Origin: Desulfuromonadaceae bacterium
GTDB taxonomy: Bacteria; Desulfobacterota; Desulfuromonadia; Desulfuromonadales; SZUA-401
Direction of reading: 5' to 3'
Assembly (NCBI GenBank): GCA_003246035.1
Contig: QKBP01000018.1
Span: 1 to 39,112, forward strand
Length of the DNA: 39,112 bases
Shown: one piece after another, positions 13,094 to 19,274 of the stretch
Layout of the letters: each line of letters begins with the position of its first letter
How positions within the stretch are numbered: position 1 is the stretch's first letter
Program-made: the position numbers and the translations under genes
Notes under the pieces: model-generated
Databases searched by the model: none
Seen by the model: the letters and a program-made list of their open reading frames with translations, nothing else
Told to the model about the DNA's origin: nothing

Positions 13094-14215
13094 ATGCAGA
13101 CCTGGTATCACGAGATGATGCTCGCAGCGGACCAGCTGTTTTTGAACCACGCCGCGATCGCCCCGTTGTCGCGGCGCGCGTTCGAGGCGATGCAGGCGTT
13201 CAATCGGGACTGCGCGCAGCGGGCGAGCAGCGACTGGCGGGACTGGCAGGGACGGGTGGCCGGGGTGCGACGCCAGGCGGCGCAACTCCTCGGTGCCGCT
13301 CCGGAGGAGATCGCCTTTACCGGCAACACCTCGAGCGGGTTGGCGACCGTGGCCGAAGGGTTCCCGTGGCAGGAGGGGGACACGATGCTCTTCGTGACTC
13401 CCGACTACCCCGCCAACGTCTACCCCTGGCAACACCTGGAGCGACGCGGGGTCAAGGTTCGGAGTCTCGCCCGCCGCGAGGGGCGTATCGACCTGGAGCA
13501 GCTCACCAGGGCCCTGGTGCCGGGGGTGCGTCTGCTCGCTGTCAGCAGCGTCGACTTCGCCACGGGCGCGGTGGCCGACCTCGCGGCGATCGGTTTGCTC
13601 TGCCGCGAGAGAGGGGTGATGCTGGCGGTCGACGCCATCCAGTCGCTGGGGGTGCTGCCGATCGACGTGCACGCCTGCGGGATTCATTTCCTCTCCGCCG
13701 GTGCGCACAAGTGGCTGCTCGGCCCCCTCGGGACGGGGGTCCTGTTCGTCGAACGTTCCTGGTGCCGTCGCCTTGCCCCTCCCCTGGTCGGATGGAAGAG
13801 CGTGGTCGACGAGGAGGACTTCACCCTGCACTTCGAACTGCGCGACGACGCGGCGCGCTTCGAGCCTGGGAGCCTCAATTTCAGCGGAATTTTCGGTCTC
13901 GGAGCATCCCTGGGGCTGCTCGCCGAGGTCGGCCCGGAGACGGTGCGCCGGCTGGTCGGGGAACGGATCGCGCAGCTGCGTGAGGGGATTCACAAGCGTG
14001 GTTTGCGGGTCCTCACCCCGGAGGGTTCGGGCGAGCAGGCGGGGATCCTGACCTTCATCCCCCATAACCGTCCGGAAGAGGTTTTCCGCAAGCTGCTGGC
14101 CGAGGGGGTGCTGCTGTCGCTGCGCGGCGGCGGCCTGCGGGTCAGCCCCCATTTCCATACCGGCCCGAGCGAGATCGAGCGCTTCCTCGAGCTGCTCGGG
14201 CGCTGCGACGGCTAG
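13094..14215 (+). CDS. Class V aminotransferase-fold PLP enzyme (C-S lyase, desulfurase or epimerase-like)
   Basis: 373 residues from the ATG at 13094 with AGGAG upstream. The N-terminal FLNHAAIAPLS, Asp180 (VDAIQS, pyridine-nitrogen contact) and the PLP lysine Lys206 (SAGAHKWLLGP) place it in the class V fold together with NifS, SelA-like, isopenicillin N epimerase-like and EgtE/C-S lyase enzymes. There is no obvious NifS/SufS mobile-loop cysteine motif, so ordinary cysteine desulfurase activity is doubtful. Its stop shares CTAG with the stop of the converging dipeptidase gene, making it the direct neighbour of the peptide-modification operon. A C-S lyase role there is attractive but inferred. 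Confidence 0.85.
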   Translation: MQTWYHEMMLAADQLFLNHAAIAPLSRRAFEAMQAFNRDCAQRASSDWRDWQGRVAGVRRQAAQLLGAAPEEIAFTGNTSSGLATVAEGFPWQEGDTMLFVTPDYPANVYPWQHLERRGVKVRSLARREGRIDLEQLTRALVPGVRLLAVSSVDFATGAVADLAAIGLLCRERGVMLAVDAIQSLGVLPIDVHACGIHFLSAGAHKWLLGPLGTGVLFVERSWCRRLAPPLVGWKSVVDEEDFTLHFELRDDAARFEPGSLNFSGIFGLGASLGLLAEVGPETVRRLVGERIAQLREGIHKRGLRVLTPEGSGEQAGILTFIPHNRPEEVFRKLLAEGVLLSLRGGGLRVSPHFHTGPSEIERFLELLGRCDG

Positions 14216-15150
14216 CCCGGGAGGACGCGGGCGTAGAAGCGCAGCCAGTTTCCCCCCAGCAGGGCGGCAATCCCTTCGTCGCCGTAGCCTTTTCGGTCGA
14301 GTCCTTCGACAAGCCGGCTCCAGCCCCGGTAGTCCTCGAGCCCGGCGCACGCGCCGGGAAATCCACCGTAGTCCGAGCCGAGGGCGACGTGCCCGATCCC
14401 TACCGTGTCGACCAGCCAGTCGAGCTGGTTCACGACCTCCCGCCAGTCAATCGTCGCGCCCTCTCCAAGCATCTCCGGGGCCAGCGCGAGGCCGATCACC
14501 CCGCCGCGAGCGGCGATGGCGCGGGCCTGTCCCGGGTCGAGGTTGCGGACACGGTCACAGAACGGGCGCAGGCCGGTGTGCGAGCTCATCACCGCGCCGG
14601 GGTAGCGGTCGAGGACCTCCTGCAGTCCCGGCGGGGCCAGATGAGCCAGGTCGATGACCCAGTTGCGCTCGGCGAGAGTTGCCAGCAGCGCTCGGCCGGC
14701 GTCGGTCAACCCCCCCGGGGCGCTGACGCCGTTCCCGTCGGCAAGCCGGTTGCGGCCGGCGTGCGTGAGCCCGGCCATCCTGACCCCCTGCGCTTCGAGC
14801 TGCGCGAGGTCGGCCTCGAGCAGGGCGTCGGCGTTTTCGATCAGCAGCAGCTGCCCGGGGCGTTCACCGGCCCGGAGTCCCTGCAGGTCGGCTGCGTGGC
14901 GCACGGGTACCAGGCCGGCCGTGGCCCGTTCCGAAAACGCGAGCTGCCGGAGGAGGTGGGGCCAGGCTTCGGTCCCGTTGTGGCGGTCGGCACAGTAGAG
15001 CGCGCAGACCATCAGGAGTACCCCGCCGTCATGAACGGCGCCGGGAGTGAACGGTCCGCTGCGCAGCGCTCTCCAACTGGCGGAGGGGGCAAAATCCTGC
15101 AGGTAGTAGGTGAGGTCGACGTGACCGTCGACGATCGCAGGGGTCGGCAT
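14212..15150 (-). CDS. Membrane dipeptidase family (peptidase M19)
   Basis: 312 residues from the ATG at 15150, five bases after the methyltransferase stop. TTG codons slightly upstream are possible starts, and none has a strong ribosome site, suggesting translational coupling. M19 zinc motifs are present in order: DGHVD (His10, Asp12), the bridging Glu in LIENAD, GLTHAGRN, DLAHL, SSHTGLRPF and LGSDYGGFPG. The family hydrolyses dipeptides, including Cys-Gly and beta-lactam-like substrates. No signal peptide is seen, so it is probably cytoplasmic. As the last gene of the radical SAM-peptide-methyltransferase operon it may trim peptide products to single amino acids. Confidence 0.88.
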   Translation of the reverse strand: MPTPAIVDGHVDLTYYLQDFAPSASWRALRSGPFTPGAVHDGGVLLMVCALYCADRHNGTEAWPHLLRQLAFSERATAGLVPVRHAADLQGLRAGERPGQLLLIENADALLEADLAQLEAQGVRMAGLTHAGRNRLADGNGVSAPGGLTDAGRALLATLAERNWVIDLAHLAPPGLQEVLDRYPGAVMSSHTGLRPFCDRVRNLDPGQARAIAARGGVIGLALAPEMLGEGATIDWREVVNQLDWLVDTVGIGHVALGSDYGGFPGACAGLEDYRGWSRLVEGLDRKGYGDEGIAALLGGNWLRFYARVLPG

Positions 15151-15155
15151 CGGCG

Positions 15156-16082
15156 TCAACGGCAAAAGAGCATGGTGTCGCTGGTGATCTGTTCGTAGTG
15201 GTTGCGATGGCTGCGCAGCTTCCAGGGGGTGCGCTCGTGGCGCAGCAGTCGCCAGGCGGGCTCGCTGTCGACGACCAGCCGGTGCTCGACCCCGGCATAA
15301 CCGGGTCCCTGGAAGGGGCCGCTACGCTGCCCCCCCAGCCACTCCTCTTCGGGGGCGACCTCGAGCGACCAGGAGAACGGGTCGGCGAAGAGGAGGGCGC
15401 TGCCGTGGTTCAGGGCGACGCGCGACAGCTCCTCGAAGTGTCTGCGCGGGCTGGGGAGCTTGTCCACCAGGTTGAGGCTCGCAAGGGTTGCGATGTTGGC
15501 GGCCCGGAACGGCAGTGCCAGGGCGTCGGCGACCAGGAACTCGCAGCGGCGCTCTTGCCAGCCGGCGGGGAGAACCAGCTGCTGCGGCTCCCCCTGGAGA
15601 CCTTCGCGGAGCAGGGAGAAGCTGATGCTCCCTTCGTTCAGGAGTCGCCGCGCCGCGTGGATGAAGTCGCTGCAGCGGTCGACGCCGAGGGTCAGGCAGC
15701 CGGTGTCGGCCATCTCGAAGGTGAAGCGCCCCACGGCGCAGCCGACGTCGAGCTGCACGCCGTCCCCCCGAGACGGCAGCCACCTGCGCCACTCCCGGTA
15801 TGCCGGGATCGCCTCGGGATCCTGCCAGAGGTCGGCGTAGTGCCCCCACAGGTAGGCCGAGAGTCGCGCCTCTCCGGCGTAGGGGTCGAAGCGGGTCGTC
15901 TCGCCGTCGGGGAGGAGCGAGGCGACGCCCTCCAGGATCGGGTAGCCCATGCCGCAGTGACGGCAGTGCAGCGCGCCGGTGACGACGTCATCGCCGCGGG
16001 TGGTCTCGGCGTCGAGGTGCAGACTCCGTTCGCCCGGGAGGCAGCGGGGGCAGATCAGGATGTCGAGCAGTTCCTGGTGCAT
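15156..16082 (-). CDS. SAM methyltransferase with Trm112-like zinc head, OvoA C-terminal-domain-like
   Basis: 308 residues. Residues 1-60 are a Trm112-type zinc ribbon (Cys11, Cys14, Cys40, Cys43; ending YPILEGVASLLP). A class I methyltransferase domain follows, with the SAM motif LDVGCAVGRF (111-120), an acidic VDRC at the end of strand two, and DPFSWSLEVAPEEEWLGG (234-251). From memory, LDVGCAVG, the NLVDKLPSPR segment and the SW...E..P.E.WLGG block recall the C-terminal N-alpha-methyltransferase domain of the ovothiol enzyme OvoA; no alignment was computed. The iron sulfoxide-synthase and DinB domains of OvoA are absent. It lies downstream of the Cys-His repeat peptide, beyond a hairpin terminator, and likely acts on that peptide or its breakdown products. 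Confidence 0.8.
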   Translation of the reverse strand: MHQELLDILICPRCLPGERSLHLDAETTRGDDVVTGALHCRHCGMGYPILEGVASLLPDGETTRFDPYAGEARLSAYLWGHYADLWQDPEAIPAYREWRRWLPSRGDGVQLDVGCAVGRFTFEMADTGCLTLGVDRCSDFIHAARRLLNEGSISFSLLREGLQGEPQQLVLPAGWQERRCEFLVADALALPFRAANIATLASLNLVDKLPSPRRHFEELSRVALNHGSALLFADPFSWSLEVAPEEEWLGGQRSGPFQGPGYAGVEHRLVVDSEPAWRLLRHERTPWKLRSHRNHYEQITSDTMLFCR

Positions 16083-16102
16083 GGTGTGTTCACCGGGTAA
16101 GG

Positions 16103-16130
16103 AAAAGGGCGGGGCCGTGAGACCCCGCCC
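16103..16130 (-). terminator. Hairpin terminator or attenuator after the peptide gene
   Basis: On the minus strand GGGCGGGG pairs perfectly with CCCCGCCC across an 8-base loop and is followed by TTTT. It sits between the precursor peptide stop and the methyltransferase start. Partial read-through would give more peptide than downstream enzyme message. Confidence 0.7.
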
Positions 16131-16157
16131 CCCGTCGCCTGGGCAGCGTCGGTCAGG

Positions 16158-16328
16158 TTATGCCGGGCCATGGCACGCGGGAGCGTGGCAAGCCGGGGCA
16201 TGACAGGCCGGGGCATGGCAGGATGGTGCATGACATGCCGGGGCGTGGCAGGAAGGCGCATGGCAGGAAGGCGCATGGCAACTTGCCGCGGTCGTCACTT
16301 TCTTTTCCACCGATTTGATCTCGAGCAT
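16158..16328 (-). CDS. Cys-His repeat precursor peptide (candidate RiPP precursor)
   Basis: A 56-residue peptide. Residues 1-15 (MLEIKSVEKKVTTAA) are a charged leader; residues 16-55 are eight uninterrupted five-residue units: SCHAP three times, then ACHAP, SCHAP, ACHAP, ACHAP, ACHGP, with a final Ala. All eight units keep Cys-His and Pro; only the first and fourth positions vary (Ser/Ala, and Ala to Gly in the last). There is no signal peptide and no CxxCH heme site. It lies 26 bases after a B12 radical SAM gene and before a methyltransferase gene, with a near-perfect ribosome site (AAAGGAGGTGA). This size, repeat plan and context fit a ribosomally made peptide that is enzymatically modified. 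I do not recognise the family. Confidence 0.88.
   Translation of the reverse strand: MLEIKSVEKKVTTAASCHAPSCHAPSCHAPACHAPSCHAPACHAPACHAPACHGPA
16164..16283 (-). repeat. Eight in-frame 15-base coding repeats, (S/A)CH(A/G)P
   Basis: The 120 bases are exactly 8 x 15 with no interruption. Synonymous positions vary (TGC/TGT, CAT/CAC, all four Ala codons and several Pro codons), while the Cys, His and Pro are invariant. Selection therefore appears to act on the peptide, and the repeat is not a fresh DNA slippage product, although the first two units are identical in DNA. Confidence 0.92.
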
Positions 16329-16333
16329 CGTGT

Positions 16334-16344
16334 TCACCTCCTTT
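16334..16344 (-). promoter_or_regulatory. Unusually strong ribosome binding site of the precursor peptide
   Basis: On the minus strand AAAGGAGGTGA ends 5 bases before the ATG at 16328 and matches the complement of the 16S rRNA 3' end over its whole length. The methyltransferase start has a related context (GGTGAACACCATG against GGTGAACACGATG) but lacks the AAAGGAG part, so the peptide should be translated far more strongly. Confidence 0.8.
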
Positions 16345-16354
16345 CGTGGCTGGG

Positions 16355-18358
16355 TCAGGCCGAATCTGCATAGAGCAGATGCAGTCCGTTGAGCTGGCGG
16401 GCCGCTGCCGAGCAGTCAGTCAGGAACTCGGCGCGGCCTTTTCCCGAGGAGTGCTCGGGGTAGAGCTGAGTGGCAATCTCCGCGAGGGGCAGGCCTTCGC
16501 GGCAGAGGGTCAGAAAATCGTAGCCGAAGCGGTTGAGCTCCTGCACCTCGAGCTGCCGGTCCTGCTGGCGGAACACCAGCCAGGTCGGTGTGGCGGGATA
16601 GCGTTCCCGTGTCACGCCCAGCTGCAGGTCGGCCACGATCTGCGGCAGGGAGTACCGGAAGCTCGCGAGGACCACGTTGCGCTGCAGCCGGGGCTGCCAG
16701 TCCCCCGCCCCGCTCAGGTCGATGGTCGCGACGGTCTCGGCGACGTTGTGGCGGGCCGCTTCGATGGCGCAGGATTCGTACTGCAGGACCTCCTCGAGGT
16801 GTGGCCAGTCGTCGCCGTGGCCGGCGATGACCCGGCGGGCGAAGGGGGGGAACTCCCGGAAGCAGGCCTGGGGGGAGAGGGGGGAGGTCGGGACCTCTTT
16901 CCTGAAGTCCGCGAACAGGAGGCTTGGCGAGCGCCTGGCCGCTTCGGTCAGCAGCAGGAAGGTCTTGGGGAAGAGGTTGATCAGCAGCGGGAAGTCGGTA
17001 GCCAGCGCGGCCAGTTCGGAGAGCTCCATCCCGGCGCAGGGGAGGTTGTAGAAGCTGCTGAACAGCTCCGGGTCGGCGTCGATACGCTCCTCGTCCTCGC
17101 TCAGCCGTTTCCCGTCGTGGAATTCGATGCCGAGGGCAAAGTAGCTGTCGACTTCCCGCACCAGGGTGCCGAGGTAGCGTCGGTGCAGATCCGTCCCCGG
17201 GAGGACCGTGGGGATCTGCATCAGCGGGTTGGAGTTGCCCCGCACCCCGGTTTGCAGCGCCAGCTGCAGGGTGGCGTCGATGTCCTCGCGCTGCTCCTCC
17301 GGGAAGCCGACCACGAAACTCAGGGTCGGGACCATCCCCTGCGCCACGGTCTCGCTGACCCGCTGGTGCAGAATGCCGGGGTCGATCTGCTTGCGGATGA
17401 ACGCCAGGGTCCGTTGCGAGCCGGAGTCGATCCCGTAGCACATCGATTCGCAGCCGGCCCGGCGCATCAGCGCCAGGGTCTCGCGGTCGACGGTGTCGAG
17501 ACGCGAGATGCAGTACCAGCTGAGGCTCTCCAGCCCGGCTTCGAGGATGCCGCGGCAGAAGTCGTCGACGAAGCGGCGGTCGGCGGTGAACTGGTCGTAG
17601 GCGAGCAGGAAGCAGTCGGCCCCGTGCTGATCGCGCAGGGTGTGCATCTCGTTGATCAGGCGTGGCACCGAGAAGGTCCGGCAGCGGCGTCGCCACATGC
17701 TCGCTTCGGAGCAGTAGACGCAGGCGTGCGGGCAGCCACGCCCGACTTCGAGGATCGCGATGCTGCGCGGCAGGTTGCAGGCATGGCGGTAGGCGTCGAG
17801 CTCCGCCACCAGGGAATAGTCAGGGAGCGGCAGGCTGTCGAGGTCGTCGATCAGCTCCCGTTGCGGTCCGTGGAGAATCTCGCGGCCGCGCCGCACGCTC
17901 ACCCCGGCCAGCCCCCCGCCGTCACCGCCCCGGGCGTAGCACTCCACCAGCTCGGGGAAGGTCACCTCCCCTTCGCCGCACACCACGGCGTCGAAGGCCG
18001 GGTGGCGTTGCAGGGTCGACTCGGCGACGAACGAGGCGTTGTGTCCGCCGACCACGATGCGGATCTGCGGGGCGAGAGCTTTCAGGCGCGCGGCGATGGC
18101 CACGGTCGGGGGGTAGGTGGTGCACTGGGCGCTGAAGGCGACCAGTTCGGGCTCGCCGGCGAGGATCTGGCGGGCGCAGTCGTCGTAGAGGGACGGCCCG
18201 GCACGCAGGGAGCCGTCGCGCAGCCCCAGAACCTGGTCGTGAACCGTCACCTCGTGGCCGCTGCGGCGCAGCCGCGTACCGAGGTTGACCAGCCCCAGGG
18301 GGGGGAGGTTGTACATCGAGGCATGGTAGAAAGGGGGGAAGACCAGCGCCACCCGCAT
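16355..18358 (-). CDS. B12-binding radical SAM enzyme with C-terminal PqqD-like recognition domain
   Basis: 667 residues from the ATG at 18358 (GGAGG six bases upstream). Residues ~1-150 are a cobalamin-binding Rossmann domain (MRVALVFPPF start, VVGGHNASF, VVCGEGEVTFPELVE). The radical SAM core follows with CPHACVYC (Cys209, Cys213, Cys216), YGIDSGSQRTL and FVVGFPEE. After a long variable region, the last ~65 residues (from about 602: VQELNRFGYDFLTL, then LPLAEIATQL, ending QLNGLHLL) look like a PqqD-type winged-helix RiPP recognition element. Relatives methylate unreactive carbons or form other radical-derived bonds in peptides. It is the first gene of the operon. The next gene is the Cys-His repeat peptide, its likely substrate. 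Confidence 0.88.
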   Translation of the reverse strand: MRVALVFPPFYHASMYNLPPLGLVNLGTRLRRSGHEVTVHDQVLGLRDGSLRAGPSLYDDCARQILAGEPELVAFSAQCTTYPPTVAIAARLKALAPQIRIVVGGHNASFVAESTLQRHPAFDAVVCGEGEVTFPELVECYARGGDGGGLAGVSVRRGREILHGPQRELIDDLDSLPLPDYSLVAELDAYRHACNLPRSIAILEVGRGCPHACVYCSEASMWRRRCRTFSVPRLINEMHTLRDQHGADCFLLAYDQFTADRRFVDDFCRGILEAGLESLSWYCISRLDTVDRETLALMRRAGCESMCYGIDSGSQRTLAFIRKQIDPGILHQRVSETVAQGMVPTLSFVVGFPEEQREDIDATLQLALQTGVRGNSNPLMQIPTVLPGTDLHRRYLGTLVREVDSYFALGIEFHDGKRLSEDEERIDADPELFSSFYNLPCAGMELSELAALATDFPLLINLFPKTFLLLTEAARRSPSLLFADFRKEVPTSPLSPQACFREFPPFARRVIAGHGDDWPHLEEVLQYESCAIEAARHNVAETVATIDLSGAGDWQPRLQRNVVLASFRYSLPQIVADLQLGVTRERYPATPTWLVFRQQDRQLEVQELNRFGYDFLTLCREGLPLAEIATQLYPEHSSGKGRAEFLTDCSAAARQLNGLHLLYADSA

Positions 18359-18395
18359 GATTATCCTCCACGGTCGAGCACGGTGAATTCCGTTA

Positions 18396-18404
18396 ATACT
18401 ACCA
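18396..18404 (-). promoter_or_regulatory. Candidate extended -10 promoter of the radical SAM-peptide operon
   Basis: On the minus strand TGG-TAGTAT fits TGnTAnnnT, about 38 bases before the ATG at 18358. There is no clear -35. Confidence 0.35.
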
Positions 18405-18457
18405 GATAGAAGCTGGAAGTGTGCGACGCTGAGGAAAAACTAACCGCGACAGGAAGC

Positions 18458-18486: not shown

Positions 18487-18527
18487 GAATCTCCACGATA
18501 TCGACCCGCCGAGCCAGGAGAGTGACC

Positions 18528-19274
18528 ATGAGCCGAAAGACCGAGCAGACCTTGTCCTGTTCCCGTTGCAGCGGGGTGTGGGAGAAGCAGGGGCAGACCA
18601 ATTGCTGGAGCGCGCCCGGAAGCGGCCCGCCCCGGCCGGGCTATTGCCCTTCGGAGCGCGAAGCCGAGATCATCGCCGACTCGTTTCGCCGTTACACCGG
18701 CAGTGACGAGGACGCGCGCCTGGCCAAGGTGGCCGCGGTCGTCGAGGGGCTCTGCTATCAGCCGGTCCCCGGTTCGGAGGCGGTCAACGCCCGCTGGACA
18801 CGGGTCGAGGACACGATCGCCCTGGCCCGCCTGATGGGGTGGACGAAGGTCGGCATCGGCACCTGCATCGGCCTGCTGCAGGAGAGCGACCGCCTGGTGG
18901 CGATTCTGGAGGCCCAGGGCCTGGAGGCCTATTCGGTCTGCTGCAAGGCCGGCAGTATCGACAAGCTCGAGCTCGAAATCGGCGAACAGGACAAGGTCCG
19001 GCCCGGAACCTTCGAGCCGGCCTGCAACCCGATTGCCCAGGCGCGACTGCTCAACGAGCAGCAGACCGACATGAACATCATCGTCGGCCTGTGCGTCGGC
19101 CACGACATGCTGTTCGCCAAGTACTCGGACGCTCCCGTGACCACCCTGGTGGTCAAGGACCGCGTCACCGGGCACAACCCCGCCGCGGTCCTCTACGGGC
19201 AGAACTTCTACTACAAGCGGCTGCAGAAGCAGCCGGTTCTCAGTGATGAGGAGCTGGAGAAGCACCGCGGGTAA
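18528..19274 (+). CDS. DUF1847 cysteine-rich putative metal-binding protein
   Basis: 248 residues from the ATG at 18528 (AGGAG upstream); the GTG two codons earlier is less well placed. The N-terminus has a cysteine cluster (CSRCSGVWEKQG, a later Cys before WSAPG, then GYCPSE), and the C-terminal two thirds match DUF1847 (GIGTCIGLLQESDRLVAILE; a further pair of cysteines in VCCKAG; GLCVGHDMLFAKYSDAPVTTLVVKDR). The family is found mostly in anaerobes and its function is not known; zinc or iron-sulfur binding is inferred from the cysteines. It diverges from the radical SAM gene and is followed by a strong bidirectional terminator. Confidence 0.82.
   Translation: MSRKTEQTLSCSRCSGVWEKQGQTNCWSAPGSGPPRPGYCPSEREAEIIADSFRRYTGSDEDARLAKVAAVVEGLCYQPVPGSEAVNARWTRVEDTIALARLMGWTKVGIGTCIGLLQESDRLVAILEAQGLEAYSVCCKAGSIDKLELEIGEQDKVRPGTFEPACNPIAQARLLNEQQTDMNIIVGLCVGHDMLFAKYSDAPVTTLVVKDRVTGHNPAAVLYGQNFYYKRLQKQPVLSDEELEKHRG

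What the first reader, a model, noticed from the sequence alone, without database searches (positions are those of the whole stretch)
14212..18358. Candidate new RiPP system built on a Cys-His repeat peptide
Four minus-strand genes stand in order: a B12 radical SAM enzyme with an apparent PqqD-like recognition domain, a 56-residue peptide of eight (S/A)CH(A/G)P units, a methyltransferase and an M19 dipeptidase. The short leader, repeat core, very strong ribosome site and recognition domain are all RiPP hallmarks. I know of no described class with tandem Cys-His-x-Pro units; novelty could not be checked.
Basis: partly seen in the sequence, partly recalled or inferred. Interest (0 to 1): 0.93.

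Follow-up and report, generated by a model that had tools for sequence, protein, structure and literature searches.

The report
Ribosome-made route to thiohistidine and selenohistidine
A gene for a short peptide of repeated cysteine-histidine units lies beside a radical-enzyme gene in many bacterial genomes, in some of them with a UGA codon predicted to encode selenocysteine in place of the cysteine, and the pair is likely an oxygen-independent, ribosome-templated way to put sulfur or selenium onto histidine, as in the antioxidant ovothiol.

Summary
Confirmed and conserved. Of 48 loci encoding a relative of the B12 radical SAM enzyme, 33 carry a (CHxP)n peptide just downstream and 13 a related peptide in which an in-frame UGA replaces the Cys of a CHAP unit; one has both, three neither. 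The UGA precedes a hairpin with frozen synonymous sites; 13 of 14 such genomes have a strong tRNA-Sec. So: very likely a RiPP precursor with a selenocysteine version. The window's methyltransferase has as nearest solved relatives OvsM, OvoA and OvoM, the 5-seleno/5-thiohistidine N-methyltransferases. Such a methyltransferase is found in 46 of 49 genomes with the enzyme, linked or not. In one clade all 7 genomes have a stand-alone OvoM over its cut-off but no OvoA sulfoxide-synthase module over cut-off. I infer an oxygen-independent, ribosome-templated replacement for that module: chalcogen moves from Cys/Sec to the next His, then release, C-S lysis, N-methylation. Peptide, UGA and hairpin are shown; the chemistry is untested. 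Ten literature searches found no description.

The parts
16158..16328 (-). Precursor peptide, 56 aa, leader MLEIKSVEKKVTTAA then eight (S/A)CH(A/G)P units; stop included
   Evidence: homologous CHxP peptide in 33 of 48 loci
16334..16344 (-). Ribosome-binding site AAAGGAGGTGA
   Evidence: sequence
16355..18358 (-). B12-binding radical SAM enzyme, 667 aa
17711..17734 (-). CxxxCxxC motif (C209, C213, C216), expected ligands of the radical SAM 4Fe-4S cluster
   Evidence: invariant in the 18 rows of A1; role from general knowledge of radical SAM enzymes
17945..18313 (-). B12-binding domain, residues 16-138
   Evidence: PF02310 1.9e-17
16379..16660 (-). Predicted C-terminal leader-binding (PqqD/HvfC-like) winged-helix domain, about residues 567-660
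   Evidence: weak HvfC match to residues 501-656; strands then three helices in the AF2 model; Pfam PqqD in 7 of 120 listed homologues
15156..16082 (-). Methyltransferase of 5-thio/5-selenohistidine N-methyltransferase kinship, 308 aa
15906..16082 (-). Trm112-like N-terminal zinc-ribbon domain of the methyltransferase (C11, C14, C40, C43 invariant in 22 rows)
14212..15165 (-). M19 dipeptidase, predicted to trim the released peptide
   Evidence: PF01244 1.4e-53; in 27 of 48 loci
13094..14215 (+). Class V PLP enzyme, convergent to the operon, predicted C-S lyase; PLP lysine K206 invariant, desulfurase catalytic-Cys loop absent
   Evidence: in 10 of 48 loci and 29 of 49 genomes

Best explanation
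These genes likely form a RiPP-type pathway in which a B12-binding radical SAM enzyme, guided by a predicted leader-binding domain, would join the sulfur (or selenium) of each Cys (or Sec) to the neighbouring histidine of a (CHxP)n peptide, to be released and N-methylated as an ovothiol-type 5-thiohistidine (or 5-selenohistidine). Shown: the conserved peptide with its strict Cys-His pairing, the UGA-for-Cys version with a constrained hairpin, tRNA-Sec in those genomes, and a methyltransferase whose closest solved relatives are all 5-thio/5-selenohistidine N-methyltransferases. Inferred: bond formation by the radical SAM enzyme, oxygen-free and in place of the sulfoxide-synthase half of OvoA; trimming by the M19 dipeptidase; C-S (C-Se) cleavage by the PLP enzyme where present, or by a general lyase where not (the OvoB role); N-methylation last. 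My odds: RiPP system 0.93; selenocysteine at the UGA 0.93; chalcogen transfer to histidine 0.5 (the figure given below).
For: Peptide conserved in 45 of 48 loci, C followed by H in 191 CHxP units of 28 parsed peptides. UGA exactly at a Cys position in 14 loci, hairpin codons TCT, CGG, AGA 14 of 14 and CCG 13 of 14 while neighbouring codons vary; SelB over cut-off in 12 of 13 and tRNA-Sec at 73-77 bits in 13 of 14 of these genomes. Cys/Sec exchange says the chalcogen matters. Methyltransferase: top three PDB relatives OvsM, OvoA, OvoM by sequence, profile and fold; TIGR04345 matched by 22 of 22 members; 32 columns shared with 11 OvoM/OvoA domains. Co-occurrence: methyltransferase in 46 of 49 enzyme genomes, unlinked in all 14 U-type genomes; 9 of 9 against 25 of 288 in an even draw. 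One clade of 7 genomes uses a stand-alone OvoM over cut-off instead, with no OvoA N-module over cut-off. PLP enzyme without the desulfurase Cys loop and M19 dipeptidase fit a release pathway.
Against: No chemistry tested. Nearest named radical SAM relatives are mostly C-methylases (ApyD, TokK, CysS, TsrM, MgmA). The window methyltransferase is under the TIGR04345 cut-off (78.5 of 170 bits). The Trm112-type methyltransferase also occurs in 25 genomes without the enzyme, in 17 of them beside a molybdopterin oxidoreductase. PLP enzyme found in only 29 of 49 genomes and in none of the 7 stand-alone-OvoM genomes; M19 in 27 of 48 loci. U-type and OvoM-type are each one event on the tree. G037 has both this system and OvoA. 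Only nine OvoA-length genomes were tested for lack of the enzyme (0 of 9). Hairpin: no compensatory changes, one row breaks a pair, no Rfam match.
Confidence: 0.5

Rival explanations
1. The product stays a peptide: the Cys-His units are modified (for example to N-methylated thiohistidines) and the finished repeat peptide binds metal ions such as copper or zinc, like a bufferin or a metallophore.
For: Up to 12 Cys-His units per peptide; HvfC-like domain recalls the bufferin/HvfA maturation systems (link recalled). METTL9, a methyltransferase of histidine in proteins, is among the more distant fold matches of the methyltransferase.
Against: U-type peptides have a single UHAP unit and few or no other Cys, poor for a multidentate chelator; a dipeptidase gene lies in 27 of 48 loci and a PLP lyase-type gene in 10; closest methyltransferase relatives act on free amino acids.
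Confidence: 0.25
2. The radical SAM enzyme is a C-methylase of the peptide (at Cys, His or Pro) and the methyltransferase N-methylates the histidines; no sulfur moves.
For: Nearest NCBIfam model ApyD, 245.6 bits under a cut-off of 750, belongs to a pathway whose B12-rSAM makes beta-methyltyrosine (PMC10635010 abstract); TokK, CysS, TsrM, MgmA among the top fold matches.
Against: Does not explain Cys/Sec exchange, the thiohistidine kinship of the methyltransferase, a true stand-alone OvoM in 7 of 7 genomes of one clade, or the PLP enzyme. AprD4 and OxsB, also among the top fold matches, are not methylases (recalled).
Confidence: 0.15
3. The enzyme makes a thio- or selenooxazole or another ring from Cys/Sec and its neighbour, as reported for SbtM and the selenobacteriocin peptide; the histidine is a bystander.
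For: A radical SAM RiPP with Cys/Sec substrates is on record: Lewis 2021, seen only as a reference title in PMC13188914.
Against: His follows the Cys in every unit counted and the UGA in 14 of 14; U-type peptides match no NCBIfam family, TIGR04081 included; no such model among the 25 best of 30 NCBIfam matches of the enzyme.
Confidence: 0.06
4. The CHAP/UHAP unit copies the active-site motif of formate dehydrogenase and the system serves maturation of molybdenum or tungsten enzymes.
For: FDH carries UHxP (Table 1 of PMC13188914); the Trm112-type methyltransferase lies beside a molybdopterin oxidoreductase in 17 of 25 genomes without the radical SAM enzyme (one scanned, L099, 308 bits to TIGR01591 with cut-off 666).
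Against: U peptides share the leader of the CH peptides and end SPVRR; none of the conserved neighbour clusters I read around the enzyme is a molybdenum gene (crude gene caller, ten representatives read by eye).
Confidence: 0.04

Closest known systems
Ovothiol pathway: OvoA sulfoxide synthase, OvoB PLP lyase, OvoA C-domain/OvoM N-methyltransferase (PMC12631010, part 1 read)
   Same: Methyltransferase kinship; a PLP enzyme is at hand in 29 of 49 genomes; the predicted net result, sulfur from Cys to His, is the same
   Different: No OvoA N-module over cut-off in 47 of 48 genomes; Cys and His come as a ribosomal peptide; a radical SAM enzyme takes the first step (inferred)
Ovoselenol/selenoneine enzymes (OvsM 9bxh; SenA) - PDB titles and a review; original papers not seen
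   Same: OvsM is the best phmmer hit of the window methyltransferase; selenium on histidine is the predicted product of the U version
   Different: Selenium would come from genetically encoded Sec
ApyD / aminopyruvatide RiPP (PMC10635010, abstract and outline)
   Same: B12-binding radical SAM RiPP enzyme, nearest NCBIfam model
   Different: 245.6 of 750 bits; no MNIO or P450 gene noticed here; different precursor
Selenobacteriocin SbtA/SbtM (TIGR04081; Lewis 2021, reference only)
   Same: Radical SAM RiPP with selenocysteine in the precursor
   Different: SGUG motif in the review table against UHAP; no match of three U peptides to the model
CefA, Cys-every-fifth RiPP peptide (NF038108)
   Same: Cys at every fifth residue
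   Different: 20.2 of 30 bits for the window peptide; over cut-off in 0 of 48 genomes
RiPP-derived small molecules: 3-thiaglutamate (PMC9016710, abstract start in listings), PQQ (recalled)
   Same: Small molecule built on, then cut from, a ribosomal peptide (inferred here)
   Different: Four to twelve CHxP units per CH-type peptide, and a Cys-His coupling not described there

Membership tests
RiPP biosynthetic system | Short precursor gene conserved beside its modifying enzyme | tested here: met
   45 of 48 loci
RiPP biosynthetic system | Leader plus core, with a leader-binding domain | tested here: inconclusive
   Conserved leader MLxIKxVEKK; HvfC/PqqD-like domain weak in the window protein, PqqD in 7 of 120 listed homologues
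RiPP biosynthetic system | Post-translational modification shown | not testable with these tools
   needs co-expression and MS
Selenoprotein (U-type peptide) | In-frame UGA followed by a SECIS-like hairpin, open frame after it | tested here: met
   14 loci; frozen synonymous sites; but no Rfam match and no covariation
Selenoprotein (U-type peptide) | Sec machinery in the genome | tested here: met
   SelB over cut-off 12 of 13 (G038 fragments only); tRNA-Sec 73-77 bits in 13 of 14 (G032 50 bits)
5-thiohistidine N-methyltransferase TIGR04345 (window protein) | Score over the curated cut-off | tested here: not met
   78.5 of 170 bits; so a distinct Trm112-fused branch, not filed as OvoM
5-thiohistidine N-methyltransferase TIGR04345 (stand-alone partner in 7 genomes) | Score over the curated cut-off | tested here: met
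   7 of 7 genomes, 306-326 bits; six proteins scanned 306-327 bits
OvoA pathway | Sulfoxide-synthase module TIGR04344 | tested here: not met
   over cut-off in 1 of 48 genomes (G037); window genome not held
EgtE/OvoB-type C-S lyase (PLP enzyme) | PLP lysine kept, desulfurase Cys loop absent | tested here: met
   11 rows and PDB alignments
EgtE/OvoB-type C-S lyase (PLP enzyme) | EgtE model TIGR04343 over cut-off | tested here: not met
   83.3 of 400 bits
ApyD NF050148 | Score over curated cut-off | tested here: not met
   245.6 of 750 bits
CefA NF038108 | Score over curated cut-off | tested here: not met
   20.2 of 30 bits; 0 of 48 genomes
Selenobacteriocin SbtA TIGR04081 | Match to the model | tested here: not met
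   three U peptides, no family up to E 10

The most novel reading that the evidence does not exclude
A categorically new biosynthetic logic: anaerobic bacteria spell sulfur or selenium transfer to histidine in the genetic code, as Cys-His or Sec-His pairs of a small peptide, and a B12 radical SAM enzyme fuses each pair, giving an oxygen-free, ribosome-templated synthesis of ovothiol and ovoselenol that has displaced the OvoA sulfoxide synthase.
Probability: 0.4. Interest if true: 0.95.

Novelty: new variant of a known kind. Interest (0 to 1): 0.88.

Why it matters
Ovothiol is made by an oxidative iron enzyme, OvoA (PMC12631010; its need for oxygen recalled). How genomes with an OvoM but no OvoA could get 5-thiohistidine is open, and this locus is a candidate answer. 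If true it adds a C-S/C-Se bond-forming reaction to B12 radical SAM chemistry, a RiPP class whose core exists in Cys and Sec versions, and a case in which selenocysteine would be a building block for a small molecule rather than a catalytic residue. A homologue of the enzyme is named from Geobacter metallireducens (P0083), a cultured laboratory bacterium, so it can be tested directly.

Tried and rejected
Peptide as CefA or SbtA: rejected on scores. Chance UGA or pseudogene: unlikely given frozen synonymous sites and the kept frame in 14 loci. Protein search with the CH peptide: one relative only, P0121, uninformative. Rfam 'evalue' search of five U loci: no SECIS family. Neighbour clusters around the enzyme: found with a crude longest-ORF caller; I read ten representatives by eye, with names from memory, and saw none that looked part of the system. 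EgtB-like genes in five U-type genomes: the one scanned is EgtB over cut-off beside an EgtD-like gene just under its cut-off, so likely a separate ergothioneine pathway.

Literature: ten searches; seven aimed at this system and none listed a paper on CHxP or UHAP peptides; one search was spoiled ('ovom' matched ovomucoid). Seen: PMC12631010, part 1 of 3 of the text and passages; PMC13188914, passages and section 7 parts 1-2 of 3; PMC10635010, abstract and outline; PMC9874932, one passage; PMC4493562 and PMC9016710, search listings only. Papers on ovoselenol, selenoneine and SbtM: seen only as references; contents recalled. Preprints outside PubMed Central and most subscription journals are not covered.

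Limits and dropped rows: the locus scan used two short peptide patterns and is not exhaustive (P0083 of G. metallireducens gave no locus). The parser missed five CH peptides that one search shows (L010, L024, L033, L040, L042), so unit counts cover 28 of 33. L048 has masked bases inside its peptide. One search used a pattern I mistyped (0 of 395 genomes, known positives missed too): uninformative; one search is the corrected search. Of the 25 methyltransferase-only loci two (L087, L092) begin at a contig end, so the enzyme could lie beyond. The Fisher value 6e-9 for stand-alone OvoM treats untested genomes as lacking the enzyme and kin as independent; I do not rely on it. G445 was not searched for SelB or OvoA.
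Full report
WHAT IS THERE. The minus-strand genes are as described: a 667-aa B12-binding radical SAM enzyme (16355-18358), a 56-aa peptide (16158-16328) behind a strong AAAGGAGGTGA site, a 308-aa methyltransferase (15156-16082) and an M19 dipeptidase (14212-15165). The peptide reads MLEIKSVEKKVTTAA and then eight (S/A)CH(A/G)P units. A class V PLP enzyme (13094-14215, plus strand) ends against the dipeptidase gene. Pfam confirms the enzymes. The radical SAM enzyme's nearest NCBIfam model is ApyD (245.6 bits, cut-off 750), and its C-terminus matches an HvfC-type leader-binding domain weakly; Pfam PqqD is precomputed for 7 of the 120 listed homologues. The AF2 model (pLDDT 89.5) has as nearest structures TokK, MgmA, CysS, TsrM, AprD4 and OxsB.

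CONSERVATION. A profile of 18 homologues (A1) found 48 loci in named genome contigs. 33 have a CHxP peptide in the same orientation directly downstream (32, L006). 13 have a related peptide with a UGA; L025 has both. L005 shows neither, L012's contig ends 108 nt after the enzyme, and L014 has only a hairpin remnant fused to the enzyme's end. In the 28 CH peptides parsed there are 4 to 12 CHxP units each, 191 in all, x being A (153), G (28) or S (10). In the loci fetched, the methyltransferase is found in 22 of 48, M19 in 27 and the PLP enzyme in 10; several loci are cut by contig ends. In an even draw of 297 genomes of the phylum the enzyme is in 9.

A SELENOCYSTEINE VERSION. In one branch of the enzyme tree the peptide reads, typically, MLQVKDIEKK...VVPT, UGA, HAP(S/T)(E/Q)SPVRR, stop: the UGA stands where the Cys of a CHAP unit belongs. 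A corrected pattern search hit 14 of 39 genomes of one order, once each, with no hit of the reversed control; 13 are the known loci and the fourteenth, L074, again lies between the enzyme and M19. L074 and L025 carry ordinary CHAP units as well. After the UGA comes a hairpin, AUCUCCG-GUN-CGGAGAU in most rows. Its codons are frozen (TCT, CGG, AGA 14 of 14; CCG 13 of 14), although TCT and AGA make up only 12% and 11% of the Ser and Arg codons of the same loci's radical SAM genes, while the third bases of His, Ala, Pro and the loop Val, and the stop codon, vary: a mark of selection on RNA. Against it: the stem shows no compensatory change, one row (L035) breaks a pair, and Rfam has no match. SelB is over cut-off in 12 of 13 of these genomes (G038 has fragments); tRNA-Sec scores 73-77 bits in 13 of 14 (G032 only 50 bits). 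A 2026 table of prokaryotic selenoprotein families (said to hold 119) lists no such peptide; its one bacteriocin entry is selenobacteriocin TIGR04081, which the three U peptides scanned do not match.

THE METHYLTRANSFERASE. Against the PDB sequences the window protein's first three hits are OvsM (5-selenohistidine N-methyltransferase, 8e-20), OvoA (6e-18) and OvoM (5-thiohistidine N-methyltransferase, 2e-12), then a gap to 6e-5; with the 22-member profile A2 they are 3e-33, 4.5e-33 and 8.5e-33, next 2e-13. The AF2 model (pLDDT 91.6) gives the same three first, next 1e-11. TIGR04345 (ovoA_Cterm) is matched by 22 of 22 members, and a Trm112-like ribbon by 22 of 22, but the window protein is under the TIGR04345 cut-off (78.5 of 170 bits). 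Thirty-two columns are at least 90% conserved both in these 22 and in 11 stand-alone OvoM or fused OvoA domains.

CO-OCCURRENCE. 46 of 49 genomes with the enzyme (the 48 plus G445) hold such a methyltransferase: 39 the Trm112 form (two cut by contig ends), including copies outside the locus in all 14 U-type genomes, and 7 an OvoM-size form; none was found in G005, G011 and G016. In the draw of 297, all 9 genomes with the enzyme have the full-length Trm112 form, against 25 of the other 288 (Fisher 1.2e-9, or 1e-8 without the centre genome; kinship not corrected). The 7 OvoM-size genomes are one clade of the enzyme tree. In their order (141 genomes) 104 have TIGR04345 over cut-off, these 7 among them at 306-326 bits, always in frames of 405 aa or less, and no OvoA N-module was found in the flanks fetched or, over cut-off, in the genomes. 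Of the other 97, three are stand-alone (G469, G500, G557), one is cut by its contig end (G572), and 93 sit in OvoA-length frames or, in four shorter frames, have the N-module beside them. In all 48 genomes only G037 has TIGR04344 over cut-off, beside this system. Nine OvoA-length genomes within the 297 draw were tested for the enzyme: 0 of 9 have it; the rest were not tested. So in one clade the enzyme's companion is an ordinary 5-thiohistidine methyltransferase in genomes where no OvoA module was found.

MECHANISM, IN STEPS. Shown by sequence: peptide, Cys-His pairing, UGA version, methyltransferase kinship. Inferred: the leader (VEKK) is bound by the C-terminal domain; radical SAM chemistry couples Cys S or Sec Se to the imidazole of the next His; proteases and the M19 dipeptidase release the linked pair; the PLP enzyme, which keeps the PLP lysine but lacks the catalytic-Cys loop of cysteine desulfurases, cleaves the C-S bond as OvoB does in the ovothiol pathway (PMC12631010) and EgtE in ergothioneine synthesis (PMC4493562, abstract in the listing); the methyltransferase N-methylates the product. 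The PLP enzyme is found in 29 of 49 genomes and in none of the 7 OvoM-type ones, so there a general lyase would have to serve.

AGAINST. The nearest named radical SAM relatives are mostly methylases. Both swaps, to U and to OvoM, are single events on the tree. G037 has both systems. The Trm112 methyltransferase also lives without the enzyme, in 17 of 25 such loci beside a molybdopterin oxidoreductase, so it has at least one other context. Formate dehydrogenase shares UHxP. A peptide end product is not excluded. No chemistry was tested.

VERDICT. The finding is real and broader than reported, and ten literature searches found no description of it. RiPP nature is very likely; thiohistidine/selenohistidine formation is the best-supported mechanism, at about even odds.

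Noticed in passing
L089-L091, L093-L096, L098, L099, L101, L102, L105-L110: In 17 of 25 genomes with the Trm112-type methyltransferase but no radical SAM enzyme found, the gene next to it encodes a ~700-aa molybdopterin oxidoreductase (one scanned, nearest formate dehydrogenase alpha, 308 of 666 bits). A second, different thiohistidine-related system?
   Followed up: partly
L112-L125: Where the methyltransferase lies outside the locus (13 U-type genomes and G014), an inositol-monophosphatase family gene follows it in 14 of 14; the one scanned is CysQ (284 bits, cut-off 229).
   Followed up: partly
L014:4480-4530: The radical SAM frame of L014 ends in ESPVRR, the tail encoded by the U-peptide hairpin: the peptide seems lost by deletion (or by an assembly collapse) while M19 and the PLP enzyme remain.
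   Followed up: partly
L135-L139: Five U-type genomes (G022, G031, G036, G041, G045) also carry an EgtB-like gene beside an EgtD-like gene; in L135 EgtB is over cut-off (488 of 360 bits), EgtD just under (286 of 291).
   Followed up: partly
L025:10046-10237 and L025:10585: One locus has both a CHAP peptide with irregular spacing and a separate UHAP peptide, a possible duplication intermediate.
   Followed up: no
window 18522-19274; L007:6867-7583: A DUF1847 gene lies divergent to the radical SAM gene in the window and, 74% identical, in L007; seen in none of the other 47 loci.
   Followed up: no
window 16355-18358: Beside the CxxxCxxC motif, C79, C194, C268, C283, C307 and C649 of the radical SAM enzyme are invariant in 18 homologues; a further cluster or active-site thiols?
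   Followed up: no
window 16346-18409: A 687-aa open frame runs antisense over the radical SAM gene, probably a by-product of high G+C.
   Followed up: no
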